Positions 16,639-49,327 of a DNA stretch of 63,446 nt are shown in pieces. Under the pieces are notes generated by a model. It was not told the DNA's origin, did not search any database, and saw nothing but the letters and a program-made list of their open reading frames with translations. The first letter of the stretch is position 1, and each line of letters begins with the position of its first letter. The DNA is taken from NCBI GenBank assembly GCA_024279095.1, contig JAJRRY010000098.1:1-63446 (forward strand), read 5' to 3'. A program made the position numbers and the translations under genes. The stretch is from Alphaproteobacteria bacterium (GTDB lineage: Bacteria; Pseudomonadota; Alphaproteobacteria; Rhizobiales; Aestuariivirgaceae).

Positions 16639-18126
16639 TCAGTCCACGGGCTCGGGCAGATATTCGGCCCGGGCAAGGTTGGAGAAGCGGGTCAGGTTGC
16701 CGTTGAACTGCACCTCCACGGTACCGGTCGGACCATGGCGCTGCTTGGCGATGATGATTTCCGCCGTACCATGGACCTTTTCCATCTTCTCCTGCCATTT
16801 GGTGAACTTCTCCGCCTCGCTCTCATCGGGCTTGCGGCGCTCCAGATAATATTCCTCTCGATATAGGAACAGCACCACGTCGGCATCCTGCTCGATGGAA
16901 CCTGATTCACGCAGGTCGGCCAACTGCGGGCGTTTGTCGTCGCGGGCCTCCACCTGGCGCGAGAGCTGGGACAGGGCGATAATGGGCACGTTCAGCTCCT
17001 TGGCCAGCGCCTTCAGGCCGGTGGTGATCTCGGTGACCTCCTGCACCCGACCCTCCATGGCCCGGCGCGAAGACCCGGCCAGCAGCTGCAGGTAGTCGAT
17101 GACGATAAGTCCCAGTCCATGCTGGCGCTTGATGCGCCGTGCGCGTGCCGCCACCTGGGCAATGGTCAGACCGCCGGTGTCGTCGATGAACAACGGCAGG
17201 CGGTCGATTTCGGCGGAGATGTCCACCAGTGCTTGGAACTGGTCTTCCGAAATGCGGCCGCGGCGGATGTCGTTGGAGGGAATGCCGGCCTCCGAGGCGA
17301 TGATGCGGGTGGCCAGCTGCTCCGCCGACATCTCCAGCGAGAAGAAGGCCACCACACCGCCCTCCATGGCGTGTGGATTGCCCAGGGCATCCTGCCCGGG
17401 ACGATAGGCACGGGCCACGTTGTAGGCGATGTTGGTGGCAAGCGCCGTCTTGCCCATGGCCGGCCTACCAGCCAGCACAACGAGATCGGACGGCTGGAGC
17501 CCACCCAGCTTTTCGTCCAGATCCTTCAGACCTGTGGAGATTCCCGAGAGGCCGCCATCTCTTTGATAGGCGGCATTGGCCATGTCGATGGCTTCCTTCA
17601 TGGCCTCGGAGAAGGCCACAAAGCCCTGACCGAACCGGCTTTCCTCGGCCACTTCATACAGGGCCTTCTCCGTCTTCTCGATAATGTCGGAGGCCGTCAC
17701 GCCAGGATCGGGACTGCGTGCTTCCACCACCAGGTCACTGCCAATATCGATCAGCTTGCGGCGGCGGGCAAGCTCGTAGACCTCGCGGGCATATTCCTCG
17801 ACATTGATCACCGGCGCCGCCATGGCCGCCAGCTTGCCAAGATAGGCGGAAACACCGCCTAGCTCGGCCATTGCCGGATCGTCGCGGTAGTATGGCACCA
17901 GTGTTACCGGGGAAACCACATGCCCCCGACCGATCATCTCCGAGATGGTGGCATAGAGCCGACCGTGCAGGCCTTCGGAGAAATGTTCCGCCTCCAGGAA
18001 CATGCTGACCTTGTCGAGCGCCGCGTTGTTGACCAGAAAGGCGCCGAGCAGAGCCATTTCCGCCTCGAGGTTGTGCGGAACGCTCCAGTCCTGAAGGGAT
18101 TCGAGATTTTGTGCGGCATCTGTCAT
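16639..18126 (-). CDS. dnaB: Replicative DNA helicase DnaB
   Basis: A 495-residue hexameric helicase that unwinds DNA at the replication fork. The N-terminal DnaG-interacting helical domain (from VPHNLEAEMALLGAFL) precedes a RecA-like domain. That domain has Walker A GRPAMGKTA, Walker B LIVIDYLQLL, the SLSRQVE-type loop (SQLSRQVEAR) and an arginine finger region near KQRHG. The ATG complementary to 18124-18126 (MTDAAQN) is chosen over the 30-codon upstream extension because it gives the normal family length. The usual rpsF-rpsR-rplI genes upstream are absent, and parB lies there instead. Confidence 0.96.
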   Translation of the reverse strand: MTDAAQNLESLQDWSVPHNLEAEMALLGAFLVNNAALDKVSMFLEAEHFSEGLHGRLYATISEMIGRGHVVSPVTLVPYYRDDPAMAELGGVSAYLGKLAAMAAPVINVEEYAREVYELARRRKLIDIGSDLVVEARSPDPGVTASDIIEKTEKALYEVAEESRFGQGFVAFSEAMKEAIDMANAAYQRDGGLSGISTGLKDLDEKLGGLQPSDLVVLAGRPAMGKTALATNIAYNVARAYRPGQDALGNPHAMEGGVVAFFSLEMSAEQLATRIIASEAGIPSNDIRRGRISEDQFQALVDISAEIDRLPLFIDDTGGLTIAQVAARARRIKRQHGLGLIVIDYLQLLAGSSRRAMEGRVQEVTEITTGLKALAKELNVPIIALSQLSRQVEARDDKRPQLADLRESGSIEQDADVVLFLYREEYYLERRKPDESEAEKFTKWQEKMEKVHGTAEIIIAKQRHGPTGTVEVQFNGNLTRFSNLARAEYLPEPVD

Positions 18127-18206
18127 GACAGGAAGCCTACAGCGAGTCGGACCGGCGGGAAAAGCCGTAGTCTGACTTTCCACGCTATCAACAGGGATGT
18201 GGACAA

Positions 18207-18232
18207 GTGTCCGCAAGATTCCTTGCGGACAC
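18207..18232. terminator. 11-bp perfect hairpin between parB and dnaB
   Basis: GTGTCCGCAAG (18207-18217), loop ATTC, then CTTGCGGACAC (18222-18232). It begins 27 bases after the parB stop in the direction of parB transcription, where a terminator is expected. The T-run (CTTTTT at 18234-18239) lies on the parB side, so it is the wrong way round for a classical minus-strand terminator. It may act as an mRNA-stabilising hairpin or with Rho. Confidence 0.5.
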
Positions 18233-18258: not shown

Positions 18259-19131
18259 TCAGGTTGGTCTGGCGAGTCGGCGGCAAACATCCTCGAGCTG
18301 CTCGAGGGTCTTGTAGGTAATGGTCAGACGCCCTCCCGCGCGACCCTTGTCCGTGATTTCCACGGTCAGACCCAGGGCGGCCTCCAGCTCCAGCTCCAGC
18401 GCCCGCACATCGGCACTCTTCTCCTTGTGCGACGTCTTTTTCATCCCTGCCGCCTTCGAGCGCTCGCGGCTCAGTTGCTCCGCCTCGCGCACGGACAGAC
18501 CGAGCTTGGCGATTTTTTTCGCCAGTGCAGACGGATCGTCGGTCGCAATGAGCGTACGGGCATGACCGGCGGAGATCTCCCCGTTGCGGATCATCTCCTT
18601 GACATCATCCGGCAGGTTCAGCAGCCGCAGCGTGTTGGCGATATGACTGCGGCTCTTGCCCAGAGTATCGGCCAGCTGCTGCTGTGTATAACCGAACTGT
18701 TCCATGAGCTGGGAATAGCCGAGCGCCTCTTCCAGCGCGTTGAGATCGGACCGCTGGATGTTCTCGATCAGTGCCACCTCAAGGGCTTCCGATTCGCTGA
18801 GATCACGGACCACGACCGGGATTTCGTGCACACCAGCCTTCTGCGCCGCCCGCCAGCGCCGTTCTCCGGCCACGATCTCGTAGCGTCCAGGTTCTCCAGC
18901 CGGCCGCGCGACAATCGGCTGCAGCACGCCACGCTCGGAAATCGAGCGCGCCAGCTCTTCCAGTTCCGCTTCATCGAAGCTGCGCCGGGGATTGTGCGGA
19001 TTTGGCGAAAGATCCGCCACTGCCACCATCTTCAGACCCCGTGCCGCCTCGACAACGCTTTCCTCGGTCACGTCATCGCCGATCAGGGCGGCAAGCCCCC
19101 GTCCCAGCCTCTTCTTGGGTACGCTGTTCAT
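18259..19131 (-). CDS. parB: Chromosome partitioning protein ParB
   Basis: A 290-residue CTP-dependent DNA clamp. The N-terminal ParB/Spo0J domain has the [12 protein letters not shown] motif (arginine patch), a central helix-turn-helix (about 135-190, containing [14 protein letters not shown]) binds parS, and the C-terminal part dimerises. It loads at parS, spreads, and is moved by ParA to segregate sister origins. A perfect parS lies 3.5 kb away between mnmG and mnmE. It is cotranscribed with parA after a 97-base gap. Confidence 0.96.
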
Positions 19132-19228
19132 CCCCGCATCATCCCCGTTTCATTGCCACATGCGAATCCGCCATTTCCGTCCGGTCTTCCCTGTTTCGGG
19201 AGCGGACGGCAGAAATCGGGCATACCTG

Positions 19229-20026
19229 TCAGGCCGCCCGCAGATCGTGTTCCCTGCGAATGATCTCCGAAGCCAGTCGGATATAGGCCTGAGACCCGGC
19301 GCAGGAGCTGTCGTAGAGCAGCACCGGCTTTCCGTGGGAGGGCGCTTCGGACACCCGGACATTCCTCGGTATGACCGTCTGGTAGACCTTGTCACCGAGA
19401 ACCGAACGCACATCCTGTGCCACTTGGTCGGAGAGCGAGTTGCGCCGGTCGTACATGGTCAGAACCACGCCCTGAATCATCAGTTTCGGATTGAGCGAGT
19501 TGCGCACGCGCTCCACGGTCCGCAACAGCTGTGAAAGGCCTTCGAGGGCGAAATACTCGCATTGCAGCGGAACAAGGACTGCATCCGCGGCCGCCAGCGC
19601 ATTGATGGTGAGCAGATTAAGAGACGGCGGACAATCCACGAGGATGTAGGAATATCCTCCGGAGCCGTCAGCTCCGCCCACCATGGCACGAACCGCATCC
19701 TTCAGCCGGTAGGTCTTGCGGTCGAAGTCCGCCAGTTCCAGCTCCGCACCCAGAAGGTCCATGGTCGAGGGTGCACAGTCGAGACCGGGAATGCCCGTCT
19801 CCGCAATGATATCCGCAAGCCGCGCCTCGCCGATCAGCATATCGTAGGTCGAGGCCCGAACCGTATCCCGTTCCACACCAAGGCCGGTGGTGGCATTGCC
19901 CTGCGGATCAAGATCCACAACCAGCACCCGCTCACCGACCGCTGCCAGAGCGGTACCCAGATTGATCGCTGTGGTTGTCTTGCCCACACCACCCTTCTGG
20001 TTCGCTATTGCCAGAATGCGTGGCAT
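19229..20026 (-). CDS. parA: Chromosome partitioning ATPase ParA
   Basis: A 265-residue deviant-Walker ATPase (ParA/Soj) with NQKGGVGKTTT in the first 20 residues, VVDLDPQGN as the Walker A' region, and IDCPPSL-type Walker B (LVDCPPSLNLL). It binds nonspecific DNA and moves ParB-bound origins. The start at MPRILAIANQ is preferred because GAGG lies five bases before it and the family normally starts there. An in-frame GTG further upstream would overlap rsmG. The order rsmG-parA-parB is the standard alphaproteobacterial arrangement near the origin. Confidence 0.96.
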   Translation of the reverse strand: MPRILAIANQKGGVGKTTTAINLGTALAAVGERVLVVDLDPQGNATTGLGVERDTVRASTYDMLIGEARLADIIAETGIPGLDCAPSTMDLLGAELELADFDRKTYRLKDAVRAMVGGADGSGGYSYILVDCPPSLNLLTINALAAADAVLVPLQCEYFALEGLSQLLRTVERVRNSLNPKLMIQGVVLTMYDRRNSLSDQVAQDVRSVLGDKVYQTVIPRNVRVSEAPSHGKPVLLYDSSCAGSQAYIRLASEIIRREHDLRAA

Positions 20027-20051
20027 GCGCACCTCGCCTTCCATTGCCGCA

Positions 20052-20714
20052 TCAAGCACGCCTGATCTCCTCCACTTTCAGGATCACACCCCCGGGATCC
20101 GTCACCGAGGGGCATGACCGCACGCGCAATTTCCAATATCTGGTGGCTTCCGTCAATTCCTCATCAACATCTTGACCTTTCAAAAACAGCCCCGACGCCC
20201 CCCGCAGCAGCATCGGCGCAGCCAGATCAAGCAGCTTCGGCAGAGGTGCAAGAGCCCGCGCCGTCACCGCCGTCCATTTCCCGCAACCGAGCGCATCCAA
20301 GTCGAGATGCTCGATTCTCGTGTTCAGTATGGTAGCACAAATTCCCGCTTCCCGAACCACGTGACGAAGGAAGGCGGCCTTTTTCGCATTGCTTTCCACA
20401 AGCACCACCCGCATGTCACCATGCCCATGCAGGGCGAGAGCCACCACCAGACCCGGCATACCGCCCCCCGAACCGAGATCCACAAGCTGTGTAAAACCCC
20501 CCTCTTCCAAATGTGGCAGCAGCTGCAACCCGTCAGCCACATGACGCACCCAGACCTGCGATAGGGTTGCCGGTCCGATGAGGTTGATCCGCTTCTGCCA
20601 GCGTTCGAGCTCCTTCACATAAAGGGACAGGCGCTTGCAGGATTCACGTGAAACATTGAACCGGCCACAGACTTCTTCCGCCCCGGCACCGGGATCGAGG
20701 ATCTCATGAGGCAT
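20052..20714 (-). CDS. rsmG: 16S rRNA (guanine527-N7)-methyltransferase
   Basis: A 220-residue SAM-dependent methyltransferase (GidB). [16 protein letters not shown] is the SAM-binding glycine loop, with an acidic residue after the second strand ([13 protein letters not shown]). RsmG methylates G527 of 16S rRNA, and its loss gives low-level streptomycin resistance. The start codon overlaps the mnmG stop by 11 bases. A near-parS sequence (20640-20655) is written into codons 20-25, giving the S-R-E-S residues. Confidence 0.95.
20640..20655. other. Near-consensus parS site inside rsmG
   Basis: GGATTCACGTGAAACA matches the parS consensus TGTTTCACGTGAAACA at 14 of 16 positions, including the full CACGTG core and right arm. 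It is 0.6 kb upstream of the parA start and 2.0 kb from the perfect site. It shares the GATTCACGTGAAAC variant with the two copies at 26001-26034. Confidence 0.6.
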
Positions 20715-22684: not shown

Positions 22685-22700
22685 TGTTTCACGTGAAACA
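22685..22700. other. parS: parS centromere site (perfect 16-bp palindrome)
   Basis: TGTTTCACGTGAAACA is the exact ParB-binding parS consensus of bacterial chromosomes. It lies in the intergenic region between mnmG and mnmE, on the parAB side of the candidate origin. It would nucleate ParB for origin segregation and recruit SMC. Confidence 0.95.
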
Positions 22701-24213: not shown

Positions 24214-26232
24214 ATGTCATATAACCGTCTTGCCGGAGAAACCAGTCCCTATCTGCGCCAGCATGCCGACAATCCGGTGCACTGGTGGCCTTGGTGCAGC
24301 GCGGCGCTAGAGACCGCCCGCCGTGAGGATCTGCCCATCCTTCTTTCCGTGGGCTATGCGGCTTGCCACTGGTGCCATGTCATGGCGCACGAGAGTTTCG
24401 AGGACGCCGAGACCGCGGCGCTGATGAACGCCCATTTCATCAACATCAAGGTGGACCGGGAAGAGCGTCCGGATATCGATCGGCACTATATGCAGGCCCT
24501 GCGCATGATGGGCGAGCAGGGCGGCTGGCCACTGACAATGTTCCTCACCCCGGATGGTCATCCGTTCTGGGGCGGAACCTACTTTCCTCCACGTCCCATG
24601 TACGGGCGCCCCTCTTTCCGACAAGTCCTTGCAGAAATCGCCAGACTCTGGAAGGAAGACAGAGAGAAGCTGCTTTCCAACGCCAAATCCCTGACTTCCG
24701 CGTTGCAGGCCCGCAGCCGTGGAGGCTCCATGGAAACCGGCAGCAGCATCCATCCGGAATTTCCGCACCGGGCAGCACAGGCCATCGGCTCGCTTTACGA
24801 CCCGACTTTCGGTGGAATGGACGCAGCCCCGAAGTTCCCTCAATGGCCGGTTCTGGAACTTCTCCTGAAAGCTGGCGATGCACCGGAACGGGCACGCGTG
24901 CTGAAGACCCTGCGTGCCATGTGCAGTGGCGGGATCTATGACCATCTCGACGGCGGTCTCGCCCGCTACAGTACCGATGAACGCTGGCTGGTGCCTCACT
25001 TCGAGAAGATGCTCTATGACAACGCCCAGTTCATCAGCCTGCTGGCCCGCGCCTGGCTCCTGACTGGCGACGACCTTTTCCGCATCCGCACGGAAGAAAC
25101 CATCGACTTTCTCCAGCGGCGGTTACTCGTGCCCGATGCGGGCTTTGCCTCCAGCCTCGATGCCGACAGTGAAGGAGAAGAAGGCAGATACTACGTCTGG
25201 TCCTGGAAGGAACTGAACGAAATCGTCTCTCCGGAAAACAGGGATCTGTTTTTCCGCACCTATGGCATCACGCGCCGGGGCAACTGGGAAGGGCGCATCA
25301 TTCTCAACCGGCTGGATACGCCCGACCTGCTGACGGAAGAGGAAGAAACCACGCTTGCAAGGGAGCGTGCCCGGCTTCTGCTGCATCGGGAGAAACGGAT
25401 CCCACCGGCGCGAGACGACAAGATCATAGCTTCCTGGAACGGCCTGGCCATCACCGCGCTGGCAGAAGCCGCGCTGGTTTTCGATCGCGATGACTGGGCA
25501 GAACTGGCAAAAGCGACATTCCATGCGGTACGTGGAATTCTTGCCGACGGATCAGGCCTGCGACAGTCATGGCTGGAGAAACCATCGAAAACCCCGGCAA
25601 CGGCCGACGGTCCGGCCTGCATGATTTCCGCAGCCACCGCATTGTATGGCATGACCATGGACCAGGAATATCTGGAGCAGGCGAGAGCATGGCAACAGGA
25701 CATGGAAGAAAGGTATCTGACCGATAGCGTATACGCCTTCACCGCCAAAGATGTGAAAGATGCCGCCTTCGTGCAGATATTCGCCGAAGACGAGGCAACA
25801 CCGAACCACAACGCCCGCATGGCGCGAAACCTGATCCATCTCGCACATGTCACAGGACGGGAAGACATGACGGCACGCGCCGATGCCATCCTGAAACGTT
25901 TCACGCAAGACATGCTGGAAAATCCCGTGGCCCATGCCGCCATGATCTCGGCCCTGCACGACAGGCACGCAGGCATGGCGCTGACACTCATCCATGCGGA
26001 AGATTCACGTGAAACGGAGGATTCACGTGAAACACGCAAACTTCTCGATCCCGTCCTGACGAAAATCCGGGATATCCCACCAATTCTTCACAGAAGGGAT
26101 TCCAGGGAAGAACAGCTGGCGGAAGAATATCCGGCACTACTTTTGTGCAAGGGCACGACATGCTCCATACCGGTGACCGATCCCGAGCAGGTCGAAGCGG
26201 CCCTTTCCATCATTGGTGGACAACAGGCATGA
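24214..26232 (+). CDS. DUF255 thioredoxin-like protein of the YyaL/SPATA20 family
   Basis: A 672-residue protein. The N-terminal thioredoxin-like domain has NPVHWWPW and the CHWCHVM motif (near residue 52), followed by ESFED and N-I-K-V-D-R-E-E-R-P-D. A long six-hairpin-type (alpha/alpha) region follows with YDPTFGGMDAAPKFP and D-A-D-S-E-G-E-E-G-R-Y-Y-V-W. The enzymatic role of the family is unsettled. It is the only plus-strand gene between hemE and the double-barrel gene. Two near-parS sequences at 26001-26034 produce a six-residue tandem peptide repeat (EDSRET twice) near residue 600. Confidence 0.93.
   Translation: MSYNRLAGETSPYLRQHADNPVHWWPWCSAALETARREDLPILLSVGYAACHWCHVMAHESFEDAETAALMNAHFINIKVDREERPDIDRHYMQALRMMGEQGGWPLTMFLTPDGHPFWGGTYFPPRPMYGRPSFRQVLAEIARLWKEDREKLLSNAKSLTSALQARSRGGSMETGSSIHPEFPHRAAQAIGSLYDPTFGGMDAAPKFPQWPVLELLLKAGDAPERARVLKTLRAMCSGGIYDHLDGGLARYSTDERWLVPHFEKMLYDNAQFISLLARAWLLTGDDLFRIRTEETIDFLQRRLLVPDAGFASSLDADSEGEEGRYYVWSWKELNEIVSPENRDLFFRTYGITRRGNWEGRIILNRLDTPDLLTEEEETTLARERARLLLHREKRIPPARDDKIIASWNGLAITALAEAALVFDRDDWAELAKATFHAVRGILADGSGLRQSWLEKPSKTPATADGPACMISAATALYGMTMDQEYLEQARAWQQDMEERYLTDSVYAFTAKDVKDAAFVQIFAEDEATPNHNARMARNLIHLAHVTGREDMTARADAILKRFTQDMLENPVAHAAMISALHDRHAGMALTLIHAEDSRETEDSRETRKLLDPVLTKIRDIPPILHRRDSREEQLAEEYPALLLCKGTTCSIPVTDPEQVEAALSIIGGQQA
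26001..26034. other. Two tandem near-parS sites inside the DUF255 gene
   Basis: AGATTCACGTGAAACG (26001-26016) and GGATTCACGTGAAACA (26019-26034) match parS at 13 and 14 of 16 positions. They are spaced exactly 18 bases apart and stay in frame, so they encode EDSRET-EDSRET. A third copy of the same GATTCACGTGAAAC variant is in rsmG. Confidence 0.6.
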
Positions 26233-27833: not shown

Positions 27834-28283
27834 CTAGAATGGCTTCACGATGACCATCACCACGATTACGATCATCAGAACCGTCGGTATCTCGTTGATC
27901 ATGCGAAAATACTTCTGATCCCGCCGGTTTCGTCCCTCGGCGAAGAGCCGCACATGATGTCGCAGGAGATAGTGAAACGCCGTCATCAGCACCACCGCCA
28001 GGAGTTTCACATGCAGCCAGGGATGCGAAAGGCCGATGATCCAGATCAGGAGCAAACCGGCGATCCACGCCGCCCACATGGCATTGACCATGATGTAGCG
28101 ATAGAGCTTGAACTCCATGATCCTGAAGGTCTCGTGAAGCTCTCCGGAATTTCCAGCCTGGGCGTGATAGACGAAGAGACGCGGCAGATAGAAAAGGCCG
28201 GCCATCCACGAGATGACCGCCATGACATGGAAGGCCTTGATCCAGAGATACCAGTCGACAAGCAATTCAGGTGGTGTCGGCAC
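27834..28283 (-). CDS. hemJ: Protoporphyrinogen IX oxidase HemJ
   Basis: About 149 residues with four to five membrane helices. The motif L-W-I-K-A-F-H-V-M-A-V-I-S-W-M-A-G-L-F-Y-L-P-R-L-F-V-Y-H carries the essential histidine of HemJ. This family replaces HemG/HemY as the penultimate haem-synthesis enzyme in most alphaproteobacteria. Its position directly after hemE fits. The probable start is a GTG complementary to 28281-28283, which overlaps the end of hemE by 17 bases. TTG at 28265 is an alternative. There is no in-frame ATG near the proper N-terminus. Confidence 0.85.
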   Translation of the reverse strand: MPTPPELLVDWYLWIKAFHVMAVISWMAGLFYLPRLFVYHAQAGNSGELHETFRIMEFKLYRYIMVNAMWAAWIAGLLLIWIIGLSHPWLHVKLLAVVLMTAFHYLLRHHVRLFAEGRNRRDQKYFRMINEIPTVLMIVIVVMVIVKPF

Positions 28284-29343
28284 TGTCGAACTCCCTGAGC
28301 CAGGCGACCATGCGCTCCACGTTCTCGATCGGCGTCTCGGGCTTGAAACCGTGACCGAGATTGAAAACATGGCGCTCGCGCGGGATGGTCCGCACGATAC
28401 GTTCCACCGCCTCCCGCAGATAGGGATCTCCCGCCATTACTGCCACCGGATCCAGATTGCCCTGCACCGGACAGATGGGGGCAAGAACTTCCGCCATGTA
28501 ATCCACCGGAAGCGGCCAGGAACATCCTACGCACTGCACGCCACTTTCACGGGCGAACTGCTCCTGCGCCGCACCGAGTCCACGGGCAAAGCCGATGACC
28601 GGAACGTCAATGCCTCTTTCCCCGAGGCCTTCGACAATCCTCCGGAAAGGTCGAATGACATACTTCTCGCGCAGACCGTCTCCCAGATCTCCGGCCCAGG
28701 TATCGAAAACCTGAACGGTATCCGCACCGGCCTCCACCTGACGGGCCAGATATTCAATCGAGGCTTCGGTGATGATGTCCACAAGACGATCGAACCATTC
28801 CTCGCCGCGGGCCGCCGCCATGCGGGTGCGCAATCTTTCGGGCGAGCCGCCACCTTCGACCATGTAGGTCGCGACAGTCCAGGGCGCACCGCAAAAACCG
28901 ATGAGCGCCACATGCGCAGGCAGCCCCTCGGAAATCCGTGCCACGGTCTCGTAGATGGAAGAAAGACGGTCGGCCACACCCTCCGGCTTCAGACGCAGCA
29001 CGTCTTCCATGGATCGCACCGGTTCGAGAACGGGTCCTTCACCGGCATTGAACGACAATCCCGCACCCAGTGCCTGAGGCACCAGAAGAATGTCGGCAAA
29101 AAGGATGGCCGCGTCCAGGTCGAAACGACGCAACGGCTGGAAAGTCACTTCGGCCGAAAGCTCCGGATCATAGCACAGATCGAGAAAGCTTCCCGCCTTC
29201 GCACGTGTTTCCCTGTACTCGGGAAGGTATCTGCCCGCCTGACGCATGAACCAGGCAGGTCTGCGCCAGGGCATGCGTCCCTCAAGGACATCCATCAGGG
29301 CCTTTCCCTTTTCCGGGCCGTGGTCGAACATCTCTCCAGACAT
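28267..29343 (-). CDS. hemE: Uroporphyrinogen decarboxylase
   Basis: About 358 residues (alpha/beta barrel). The RPAWFMRQAGRYLPEYRE motif near the N-terminus holds the substrate-binding arginines, and later come F-A-D-I-L and the GFCGAPWT region. It converts uroporphyrinogen III to coproporphyrinogen III. The ATG at 29343 (MSGEMFDHG) is chosen. GGAGAG lies inside its first codons and directly abuts a second ATG (29331), so a slightly shorter start is possible. In Caulobacter and Rickettsia the chromosome origin is next to hemE, and the divergent gap upstream here is a good match to that arrangement. Confidence 0.95.
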   Translation of the reverse strand: MSGEMFDHGPEKGKALMDVLEGRMPWRRPAWFMRQAGRYLPEYRETRAKAGSFLDLCYDPELSAEVTFQPLRRFDLDAAILFADILLVPQALGAGLSFNAGEGPVLEPVRSMEDVLRLKPEGVADRLSSIYETVARISEGLPAHVALIGFCGAPWTVATYMVEGGGSPERLRTRMAAARGEEWFDRLVDIITEASIEYLARQVEAGADTVQVFDTWAGDLGDGLREKYVIRPFRRIVEGLGERGIDVPVIGFARGLGAAQEQFARESGVQCVGCSWPLPVDYMAEVLAPICPVQGNLDPVAVMAGDPYLREAVERIVRTIPRERHVFNLGHGFKPETPIENVERMVAWLREFDSADTT

Positions 29344-29710
29344 AAGAGAAGAACCTGTCTGTTGTTGTAGTTGCCGGTGTGGATTTCGGGAATTTCCATA
29401 GATCCACAGGTTGTCCCTTTTTCCACCATTTGCCTTCCGATTCAAAGGGATTTGCATCCATGCCCACATTTCTGGCGAAAAAACGGGGTTAGAACATGGA
29501 CTTGCGGCGCCTCCGTATTTCCTTGGCCAACATCGGCTCCCGGCTCTTTCCGGCATTTCGTCAACAGATGACCAACATCAGGAAAATTCGCCGCAGGTCT
29601 CTCCACATGTGGAGGACAGGTGCAGCAGATGCGGTGGCAATGGCATAATTCCCCGCACCGGTCTACAATCCTTCCCGTAATCCACATCTTCATGACAGGC
29701 GTTCCGGACA
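29344..29710. other. oriC: Candidate chromosome replication origin (hemE-ppsR intergenic region)
   Basis: This 367-base gap between divergent hemE and ppsR contains no credible gene. DnaA-box-like TCCACA motifs are at 29378-29386 (reverse), 29400-29408, 29599-29607, 29608-29616 (reverse) and 29678-29686 (TAATCCACA, one mismatch to TTATCCACA). A consensus-fitting TTTTCCACA is at 29733-29741 just inside ppsR. Two of them form the 14-bp palindrome CTCCACATGTGGAG (29601-29614). Most genes on either side point away from this gap. Alphaproteobacterial origins are often beside hemE. No AT-rich unwinding element stands out by eye, so the call is tentative. Confidence 0.55.
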
Positions 29711-30538
29711 GTGTCGCACACGGCAAGCCGATTTTTCCACATCCATCTGGTCTCCGACGCCAGTGGCGAGACCATAACCCGTGTCGCCCGGGCGGCGGCG
29801 GCCAACTATGCCAGCCACCGGCCGATCGAACATCTGCATGCCATGGTGCGTGCTCCGGCACAGCTTGATGCGGCCATTGCGGAAATCGAGAAGGCGCCCG
29901 GCATCGTGCTCTACACGCTGGCCGACCGCAATCTGAAATCCCGTCTGGAGAAGGCCTGTTCCGAACTCGGCCTGCCCTGTGTCTCCATCCTGGACCCTGC
30001 CATCGCGGCACTGGCCGGATATCTGAATGCGGAAATCCGGCCACGGGTGGGCGGGCAGCATGCCCTGAACGAGGAATACTTTTCACGCATCAAGGCTCTC
30101 GACTTCACCATGATGCATGATGACGGCCAGCATCCCGAAACGCTGGAACAGGCGGATGTGGTACTCGTGGGCATCTCGCGTACGTCCAAGACACCGACCA
30201 GCATCTATCTTGCCAACCGCGGACTGAAAACCGCAAACGTGCCATTCGTACCGGGGCGACCACTGCCGGAAGAACTGTTCCGTCTGAACAGGCCGCTGGT
30301 GGTCGGACTGGTGGCCAATGCTTCCGTCATTGCCGATATCCGACGCAAGCGCCTGGACATACTCAATGACAGCGGAAACCACGATTACGTGGACCGTCGC
30401 CAGATCGCCCGCGAGATCAACGAATTGAAAACCCTTTGCGCCCGCCATGGCTGGCCGGTTATAGACGTTTCGCGCCGTTCCATCGAGGAGACGGCGGCGC
30501 TCGTGCTCAATCTTCTGGATGGAAAGAACGATCGATGA
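29711..30538 (+). CDS. ppsR: Phosphoenolpyruvate synthase / pyruvate-phosphate dikinase regulatory protein (PSRP/PPSR)
   Basis: A 275-residue bifunctional ADP-dependent kinase and Pi-dependent pyrophosphorylase (DUF299) that switches PEP synthase or pyruvate phosphate dikinase off and on. The N-terminus FFHIHLVSDASGETIT and the P-loop-like G-I-S-R-T-S-K-T-P are diagnostic. It starts with GTG and is the first gene of a tight rightward run, ppsR-maf-aroE-coaE. The target dikinase is not in the window. This gene corresponds to the one usually found across the origin from hemE. Confidence 0.94.
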   Translation: MSHTASRFFHIHLVSDASGETITRVARAAAANYASHRPIEHLHAMVRAPAQLDAAIAEIEKAPGIVLYTLADRNLKSRLEKACSELGLPCVSILDPAIAALAGYLNAEIRPRVGGQHALNEEYFSRIKALDFTMMHDDGQHPETLEQADVVLVGISRTSKTPTSIYLANRGLKTANVPFVPGRPLPEELFRLNRPLVVGLVANASVIADIRRKRLDILNDSGNHDYVDRRQIAREINELKTLCARHGWPVIDVSRRSIEETAALVLNLLDGKNDR

Positions 30539-49251: not shown

Positions 49252-49327
49252 TGGAGCGGGCGACGGGGATCGAACCCGCGACCCCGAGCTTGGGAAGCTC
49301 GTGCTCTGCCAACTGAGCTACGCCCGC
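49252..49327 (-). tRNA. tRNA-Gly (anticodon CCC)
   Basis: On the minus strand the cloverleaf is complete. The acceptor stem GCGGGCG pairs with CGCCCGC. The D-arm is GCTC...GAGC, and the anticodon stem CGAGC/GCTCG has the seven-base loop TTCCCAA (anticodon CCC). The T-arm has TTCGATC, and the CCA end is encoded, giving 76 bases. It reads GGG glycine codons. Confidence 0.95.

What the first reader, a model, noticed from the sequence alone, without database searches (positions are those of the whole stretch)
29344..29741. Candidate chromosome origin between hemE and ppsR
The gap is flanked by the genes that border the origin in other alphaproteobacteria. Six TCCACA-type DnaA-like motifs lie within 364 bases, two forming a palindrome. 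Essential genes on both sides point outward (leftward hemE to dnaB and on to radA; rightward ppsR to metK), as expected for co-orientation with replication.
Basis: partly seen in the sequence, partly recalled or inferred. Interest (0 to 1): 0.6.

Follow-up and report, generated by a model that had tools for sequence, protein, structure and literature searches.

The report
Likely chromosome replication origin
This 367-base gap between two divergent genes is very probably where this uncultured bacterium starts copying its chromosome, at the place already known for its wider group, so it is an expected rather than a surprising find.

Summary
The gap between hemE (start 29343, minus) and ppsR (start 29711, plus) is very probably oriC of a draft genome whose relatives are Hyphomicrobiales. 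Six TCCACA motifs lie in 364 bp, two as a palindrome: the densest cluster in the window, as the matching gap is in a 1.07 Mb contig of a same-genus relative. Five are intergenic; the sixth lies inside ppsR codons and is not conserved in the closest relative. Intergenic box bases are 93% conserved there, against 58% for the rest of the gap. The genome's only perfect parS and parAB lie 6.6 and 9-11 kb away; 23 of 25 named genes from dnaB to metK point outward; the window's GC-skew minimum is 0.7 kb off. Across 127 distinct hemE-ppsR gaps TCCACA is about 12-fold enriched. Against it: whole-chromosome skew cannot be computed (236 contigs); the same-genus relative shows a skew step without a sign change; CtrA and IHF consensus sites are absent; 26 of 69 family genomes gave no ppsR match. 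This is the known alphaproteobacterial hemE/COG1806 origin: a new member, low surprise. Side result: six genus members have separated hemE from ppsR; in the five readable ones no boxes went with ppsR.

The parts
29344..29710 (.). hemE-ppsR intergenic gap, proposed oriC (367 bp, 51.5% GC against 61.8% for the window)
29378..29383 (-). DnaA-box-like TCCACA (box 1)
   Evidence: conserved in the closest relative G068
29403..29408 (+). DnaA-box-like TCCACA (box 2); start of a 28-bp stretch TCCACA...TTTTTCCACCATT identical in G068
29602..29613 (.). Palindromic pair of boxes TCCACATGTGGA (boxes 3 and 4); box 3 is conserved in G068, box 4 only in part
   Evidence: a second genomic copy of the palindrome lies at C94:11703
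29681..29686 (+). DnaA-box-like TCCACA (box 5; TAATCCACA, one mismatch to TTATCCACA)
   Evidence: conserved in G068
29736..29741 (+). Sixth TCCACA, inside ppsR codons; probably incidental
   Evidence: not conserved in G068
29383..29457 (.). Lowest-GC 40-mers of the gap (40% GC), possible unwinding element (inferred)
28267..29343 (-). hemE, uroporphyrinogen decarboxylase (start ATG at 29343)
   Evidence: TIGR01464; start
29711..30538 (+). ppsR / COG1806 (DUF299) regulator
   Evidence: NF003742
22685..22700 (.). Perfect parS TGTTTCACGTGAAACA, the only one in the genome at up to one mismatch
18259..20059 (-). parB (18259-19131) and ParA-type gene (19229-20059), chromosome partition
16639..18216 (-). 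dnaB replicative helicase
   Evidence: NF006606/TIGR00665
30446..30446 (.). Minimum of cumulative GC skew in the window

Best explanation
The hemE-ppsR gap is the chromosome's replication origin. DnaA (encoded elsewhere, contig C56) binds the five intergenic boxes, opens the less GC-rich DNA of the hemE-proximal half, and loads DnaB; two forks leave in opposite directions, so the surrounding genes mostly point away, and ParB bound at parS 6.6 kb away segregates the new copies. Shown here: the box cluster, its conservation, the gene context, parS, polarity, and a local skew minimum. Inferred from the biology of other bacteria: DnaA binding, unwinding site, fork departure, ParB action.
For: Box cluster is the densest of the window, and the matching gap is the densest on a 1.07 Mb contig of a same-genus relative. 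TCCACA mean 2.54 against 0.21 expected in 127 distinct gaps, 4.98 against 0.39 per kb in 68 long loci. Boxes: 28 of 30 bases conserved against 194 of 337 elsewhere in the gap in the nearest relative (Fisher p 5e-5, on an alignment partly anchored by the boxes). hemE just upstream of ppsR in 131 of 136 fetched loci, which are the best hits of capped lists. Single perfect parS. 23 of 25 named genes outward. Skew minimum at 30446; left -0.067, right +0.011. Clean sign change at the gap in G111 and G253. In G059 two blocks (five genes) that changed arm kept outward polarity. Known origins lie here: Caulobacter and Rickettsia (PMC1914354, passages); Hyphomonas marker frequency peaks close to hemE with parAB about 7 kb away (PMC6650430, passages).
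Against: G059 (same genus): mean skew is positive on both sides of the gap (+0.024 ppsR side, +0.075 hemE side), a step without a sign change; detrended minimum at 566,958, 25 kb from the gap. The window's ppsR arm is near zero overall. G058 shows no usable skew; G132 and G209 agree only in part. No CtrA site at up to one mismatch, no IHF consensus, no strongly AT-rich stretch. In 12 of 68 long loci another stretch has more boxes than the gap, and 6 of the 68... or more gaps hold none or one box (listed). ppsR gave no match in 26 of 69 family genomes and 33 of 199 order genomes, so the pair is not universal; where those genomes start replication was not examined. Nine of 42 genes compared with G059 changed polarity. 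Operons make polarity counts non-independent.
Confidence: 0.87

Rival explanations
1. The gap is an ancestral origin that has lost, or is losing, its role in this genus; initiation now happens elsewhere and the boxes are a relic or serve gene regulation.
For: In G059 the skew does not change sign at the gap. In six other genus members hemE and ppsR are separated, and the hemE upstream regions read in G061, G062 and G067 hold only 1, 2 and 1 boxes. The window's gap has no CtrA-type site.
Against: In the window and its nearest relative the boxes are the best-conserved part of the gap; the window has its own skew minimum there; the only perfect parS is close by. The ppsR arm of G059 is rearranged relative to the window, which can blur skew without moving the origin.
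Confidence: 0.08
2. The boxes form a DnaA-controlled divergent promoter for hemE and ppsR, not an origin.
For: The gap is a divergent intergenic region and DnaA can act as a transcription factor (general knowledge).
Against: In five relatives where ppsR is away from hemE, the 469-501 bp upstream of ppsR hold no TCCACA, so ppsR does not need them; polarity, skew and parS proximity are not explained. A role at hemE alone is not excluded.
Confidence: 0.03
3. The origin lies beside dnaA, as in many bacteria, on contig C56.
For: dnaA is not linked to the window.
Against: The 3.5 kb around dnaA hold five TCCACA, never more than two within 364 bp; no parS there at up to one mismatch. In Hyphomonas the dnaA gene was not a useful marker of the origin (PMC6650430, passages).
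Confidence: 0.02

Closest known systems
Caulobacter crescentus Cori (between hemE and COG1806/CC_0001)
   Same: Same flanking genes, DnaA-box cluster, lower GC than the surroundings
   Different: No CtrA sites (TTAA-N7-TTAA) and no IHF consensus in the window's gap; Cori is reported with five CtrA and one IHF site (PMC1914354, passages). Cori's DnaA sites are G- and W-boxes (PMC4468827, passages); box classes were not tested here.
Rickettsia (hemE-COG1806) and Wolbachia/Ehrlichia/Anaplasma (hemE-COG1253) predicted origins
   Same: Origin next to hemE; where COG1806 moved away in Wolbachia, the predicted origin stayed with hemE (PMC1914354, passages), as the boxes in relative G065 do
   Different: In the window hemE and COG1806/ppsR are still adjacent, unlike Wolbachia
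Hyphomonas neptunium origin region
   Same: Replication peak close to hemE, parAB about 7 kb away; skew, dnaA and box analysis gave no clear result there (PMC6650430, passages)
   Different: Measured there by marker frequency; not measurable here

Membership tests
Alphaproteobacterial hemE-COG1806 chromosome origin | Intergenic region flanked by hemE and COG1806/ppsR | tested here: met
Alphaproteobacterial hemE-COG1806 chromosome origin | Cluster of DnaA boxes above chance | tested here: met
   6 in 364 bp (5 intergenic), 0 of 2000 simulations reached 6
Alphaproteobacterial hemE-COG1806 chromosome origin | AT content above genome average | tested here: met
   51.5% GC against 61.8% for the window (whole-genome GC not computed); no very AT-rich core (lowest 40-mer 40% GC)
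Alphaproteobacterial hemE-COG1806 chromosome origin | No comparable cluster elsewhere in the genome | tested here: inconclusive
   Unmatched in the window and on contig C11 of G059; the other 235 own contigs were not scanned for clusters, apart from 3.5 kb at dnaA
Alphaproteobacterial hemE-COG1806 chromosome origin | GC-skew shift at the region | tested here: inconclusive
   Window minimum 0.7 kb away; clear in G111 and G253, partial in G132 and G209, step only in G059, none in G058
Alphaproteobacterial hemE-COG1806 chromosome origin | Replication starts there in cells | not testable with these tools
   No reads or culture
CtrA-controlled origin of the Caulobacter type | CtrA sites TTAA-N7-TTAA in the origin | tested here: not met
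   0 in the gap even with one mismatch; no TTAA at all, although CtrA itself is encoded (C102, over the cut-off)
CtrA-controlled origin of the Caulobacter type | IHF site | tested here: not met
   Recalled consensus WATCAANNNNTTR absent; degenerate sites not excluded

The most novel reading that the evidence does not exclude
This genus is caught in the middle of uncoupling and moving its origin: the gap carries no CtrA site, one arm carries no normal skew, and in several sister species hemE and ppsR have been split with the box cluster staying with hemE or eroding, so the origin may have been relocated more than once within one genus.
Probability: 0.1. Interest if true: 0.4.

Novelty: new member of a known kind. 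Interest (0 to 1): 0.17.

Why it matters
It gives a well-supported starting point for the chromosome of an uncultured lineage, which allows growth-rate estimates from read coverage and orientation of the draft assembly. The genus around it, with the hemE-ppsR pair intact in some species and split in others, could be used to ask how an origin moves.

Tried and rejected
Origin beside dnaA: rejected, no box cluster there. CtrA control of this origin: no sites in this gap; exact CtrA-type sites occur in 41 of 127 distinct gaps. Loss of the CtrA or GcrA genes as the reason: rejected, both are present in the genome. RNA gene in the gap: nothing at Rfam gathering thresholds; the only hit in the window is a tRNA at 49255-49327. 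Skew in G058 (7.18 Mb contig): 20 stretches between -0.038 and +0.022, uninformative. Whole-contig skew of G059 was expected to flip sign at the gap and did not; told as evidence against. Gene calls contain errors (for example a plus-strand ORF on top of lysA; maf and hemJ missed), so its third-position skews are approximate. In one search, 5 of 136 loci had no hemE upstream: L017 and L059 are cut by contig ends; L067, L101 and L114 have about 6 kb upstream without it; 4 duplicate gaps were dropped to reach 127. The G111, G132, G209 and G253 genomes were picked from the single-contig genomes listed because ppsR was on the plus strand with room on both sides, before their skew was known. Papers: PMC1914354, PMC4468827, PMC6650430, PMC4036050, PMC8116508, PMC10185800 and PMC2877005 were seen only as found passages; PMC10185800, PMC4036050 and PMC8116508 gave nothing used. 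PMC139603 is not held. The Sinorhizobium origin paper (Sibley 2006) was seen only in a reference list. No claim is made that anything here is absent from print.

Full report
What is there. The gap lies between hemE (28267-29343, minus) and ppsR (29711-30538, plus). Six TCCACA motifs stand at 29378(-), 29403(+), 29602(+), 29608(-), 29681(+) and 29736(+). They span 364 bp. The third and fourth form the palindrome TCCACATGTGGA, which occurs at one other place in the genome (C94:11703). The sixth lies within the ppsR reading frame, in the codons of an F-F-H-I segment, so the intergenic count is five. No simulated sequence of the same dinucleotide make-up reached six (0 of 2000, maximum 4), and counting 364 bp from each site no other part of the window holds more than three. 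The window as a whole has 61 TCCACA against 29 expected from shuffles, so the cluster counts, not single motifs.

Surroundings. Profiles name dnaB, parB, a ParA-type gene, rsmG, mnmG, mnmE, a DUF255 gene, rho, hemJ and hemE on the left, and ppsR, maf, aroE, coaE, ahcY, hslU, a response regulator and a ChvG-like kinase (both below their cut-offs), fabA, fabB, a penicillin-binding protein and metK on the right. From dnaB to metK, 23 of 25 named genes point away from the gap; the exceptions are DUF255 and ahcY. A perfect parS stands at 22685-22700 between mnmG and mnmE, the only hit at up to one mismatch in the whole genome. dnaA is on another contig, without a box cluster.

Skew. The genome is a 2.41 Mb draft in 236 contigs, so the whole-chromosome test cannot be done. 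Within the window the cumulative G-C minimum is at 30446; mean skew is -0.067 to the left of the gap and +0.011 to the right. Third-position skews, for plus/minus genes, go from -0.205/-0.089 on the left to -0.034/+0.019 on the right (approximate gene calls). Of four single-contig genomes of the order, G111 and G253 are negative in 5 of 5 stretches on the hemE side and positive in 5 of 5 on the ppsR side; G209 is 5 of 5 and 3 of 5; G132 is 4 of 5 and 2 of 5. G058 of the same family has no usable skew. G059 of the same genus has a step, mean +0.024 on the ppsR side (4 of 29 bins of 20 kb negative) and +0.075 on the hemE side (1 of 23 negative), but no sign change, and the detrended minimum is 25 kb off. 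On that contig the ppsR side is strongly rearranged relative to the window: dnaB and the radA-mlaF-mlaE-alr block have crossed from the hemE side to the ppsR side, all five genes keeping outward polarity. This fits inversions around an origin at the gap and could have blurred the skew, but it is two blocks only; 9 of 42 genes compared changed polarity.

Comparison. Of 136 fetched loci with ppsR (best hits of capped lists), 131 have hemE just upstream. ppsR itself gave no match in 26 of 69 family genomes and 33 of 199 order genomes, so the pair is common, not universal. Among 127 distinct gaps the mean TCCACA count is 2.54 against 0.21 in mononucleotide shuffles; 61 have three or more, while some have none. 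In 68 loci of at least 8 kb the density is 4.98 per kb in the gap and 0.39 outside; the gap holds the strictly highest count in 38, ties in 18 and is lower in 12. On the 1.07 Mb contig of G059 the gap region is the top cluster (five in 364 bp, one of them inside ppsR; next best three). Against the nearest relative, G068 (ppsR 79% identical), 28 of 30 box bases in the gap are conserved against 194 of the other 337, and the sixth motif is not conserved (Fisher p 5e-5). The alignment is partly anchored by the boxes themselves, so the contrast is somewhat inflated.

A natural experiment. Three genus members besides the window keep the pair with four or five intergenic boxes (G059, G060, G068). In six others hemE and ppsR are on different contigs and no hemE lies in the flank of ppsR that was read where it was read (G061, G062, G064, G066, G067); G065 has only a partial ppsR match, on another contig. 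In the five whose ppsR upstream could be read, the 469-501 bp before ppsR hold no TCCACA. The hemE upstream of G065, now next to the DUF255 gene, holds five; those of G061, G062 and G067 hold one, two and one; G064 and G066 are cut by contig ends. The boxes therefore do not belong to ppsR. This mirrors what was reported for Wolbachia, where the predicted origin stayed with hemE after COG1806 moved (PMC1914354, passages).

Regulators. No TTAA and no CtrA site with up to one mismatch is present in the gap, while CtrA and GcrA are encoded. The two nearest relatives have one-mismatch sites only (L003 two, L004 one). Exact CtrA-type sites occur in 41 of 127 distinct gaps, among them 10 of 11 gaps read from genus g2 of the same family. 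[quoted passage not shown] the motif counts here are motif counts only, not binding. The gap is thus a hemE-COG1806 origin but not shown to be CtrA-controlled.

How it most likely works. DnaA assembles on the five boxes, opens the gap, most likely in its hemE-proximal half where GC is lowest (29383-29457), and loads the helicase; forks leave both ways. Binding, opening and fork departure are inferred from other bacteria.

Verdict. The kind is known (Caulobacter, Rickettsia, Hyphomonas), so novelty is low. The open point is the weak or one-sided skew in this genus and the repeated splitting of the hemE-ppsR pair.

Noticed in passing
window 20640-20655, 26001-26016, 26019-26034: Three near-parS sequences (two GGATTCACGTGAAACA, one AGATTCACGTGAAACG; 2-3 mismatches) lie near the perfect parS, two of them nearly in tandem inside the DUF255 gene.
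   Followed up: no
L187, L188, L189, L190 (hemE side) and L194, L101, L114, L195, L196 (ppsR side): In a subset of the genus hemE and ppsR have been separated, with different new neighbours of hemE (read by eye from ORFs: a thioredoxin in G061, his genes in G062, trmB in G067; DUF255 by tblastn in G065); ppsR upstream keeps no boxes.
   Followed up: partly
genome G063 (same genus, 98% complete): No match for ppsR, hemE or GcrA and only sub-cut-off matches to the CtrA model; either real loss or a binning problem.
   Followed up: no
family genomes of genus g2, e.g. G002, G019, G021, G025: Many nearly complete g2 genomes give no ppsR match (26 of 69 family genomes in all); where their origin lies was not examined.
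   Followed up: no
hemE-ppsR gaps of genus g2, e.g. L016, L027, L031: One or two exact TTAA-N7-TTAA CtrA-type sites in 10 of 11 g2 gaps, where shuffles give 0.07-0.30 even at one mismatch; no exact site in the window, L003 or L004.
   Followed up: partly
G059 contig C11, 460-540 kb: A stretch of about 60-80 kb with negative skew inside an otherwise mostly positive contig, holding the radA-mlaF-mlaE-alr block that changed arm; looks like an inverted segment.
   Followed up: partly
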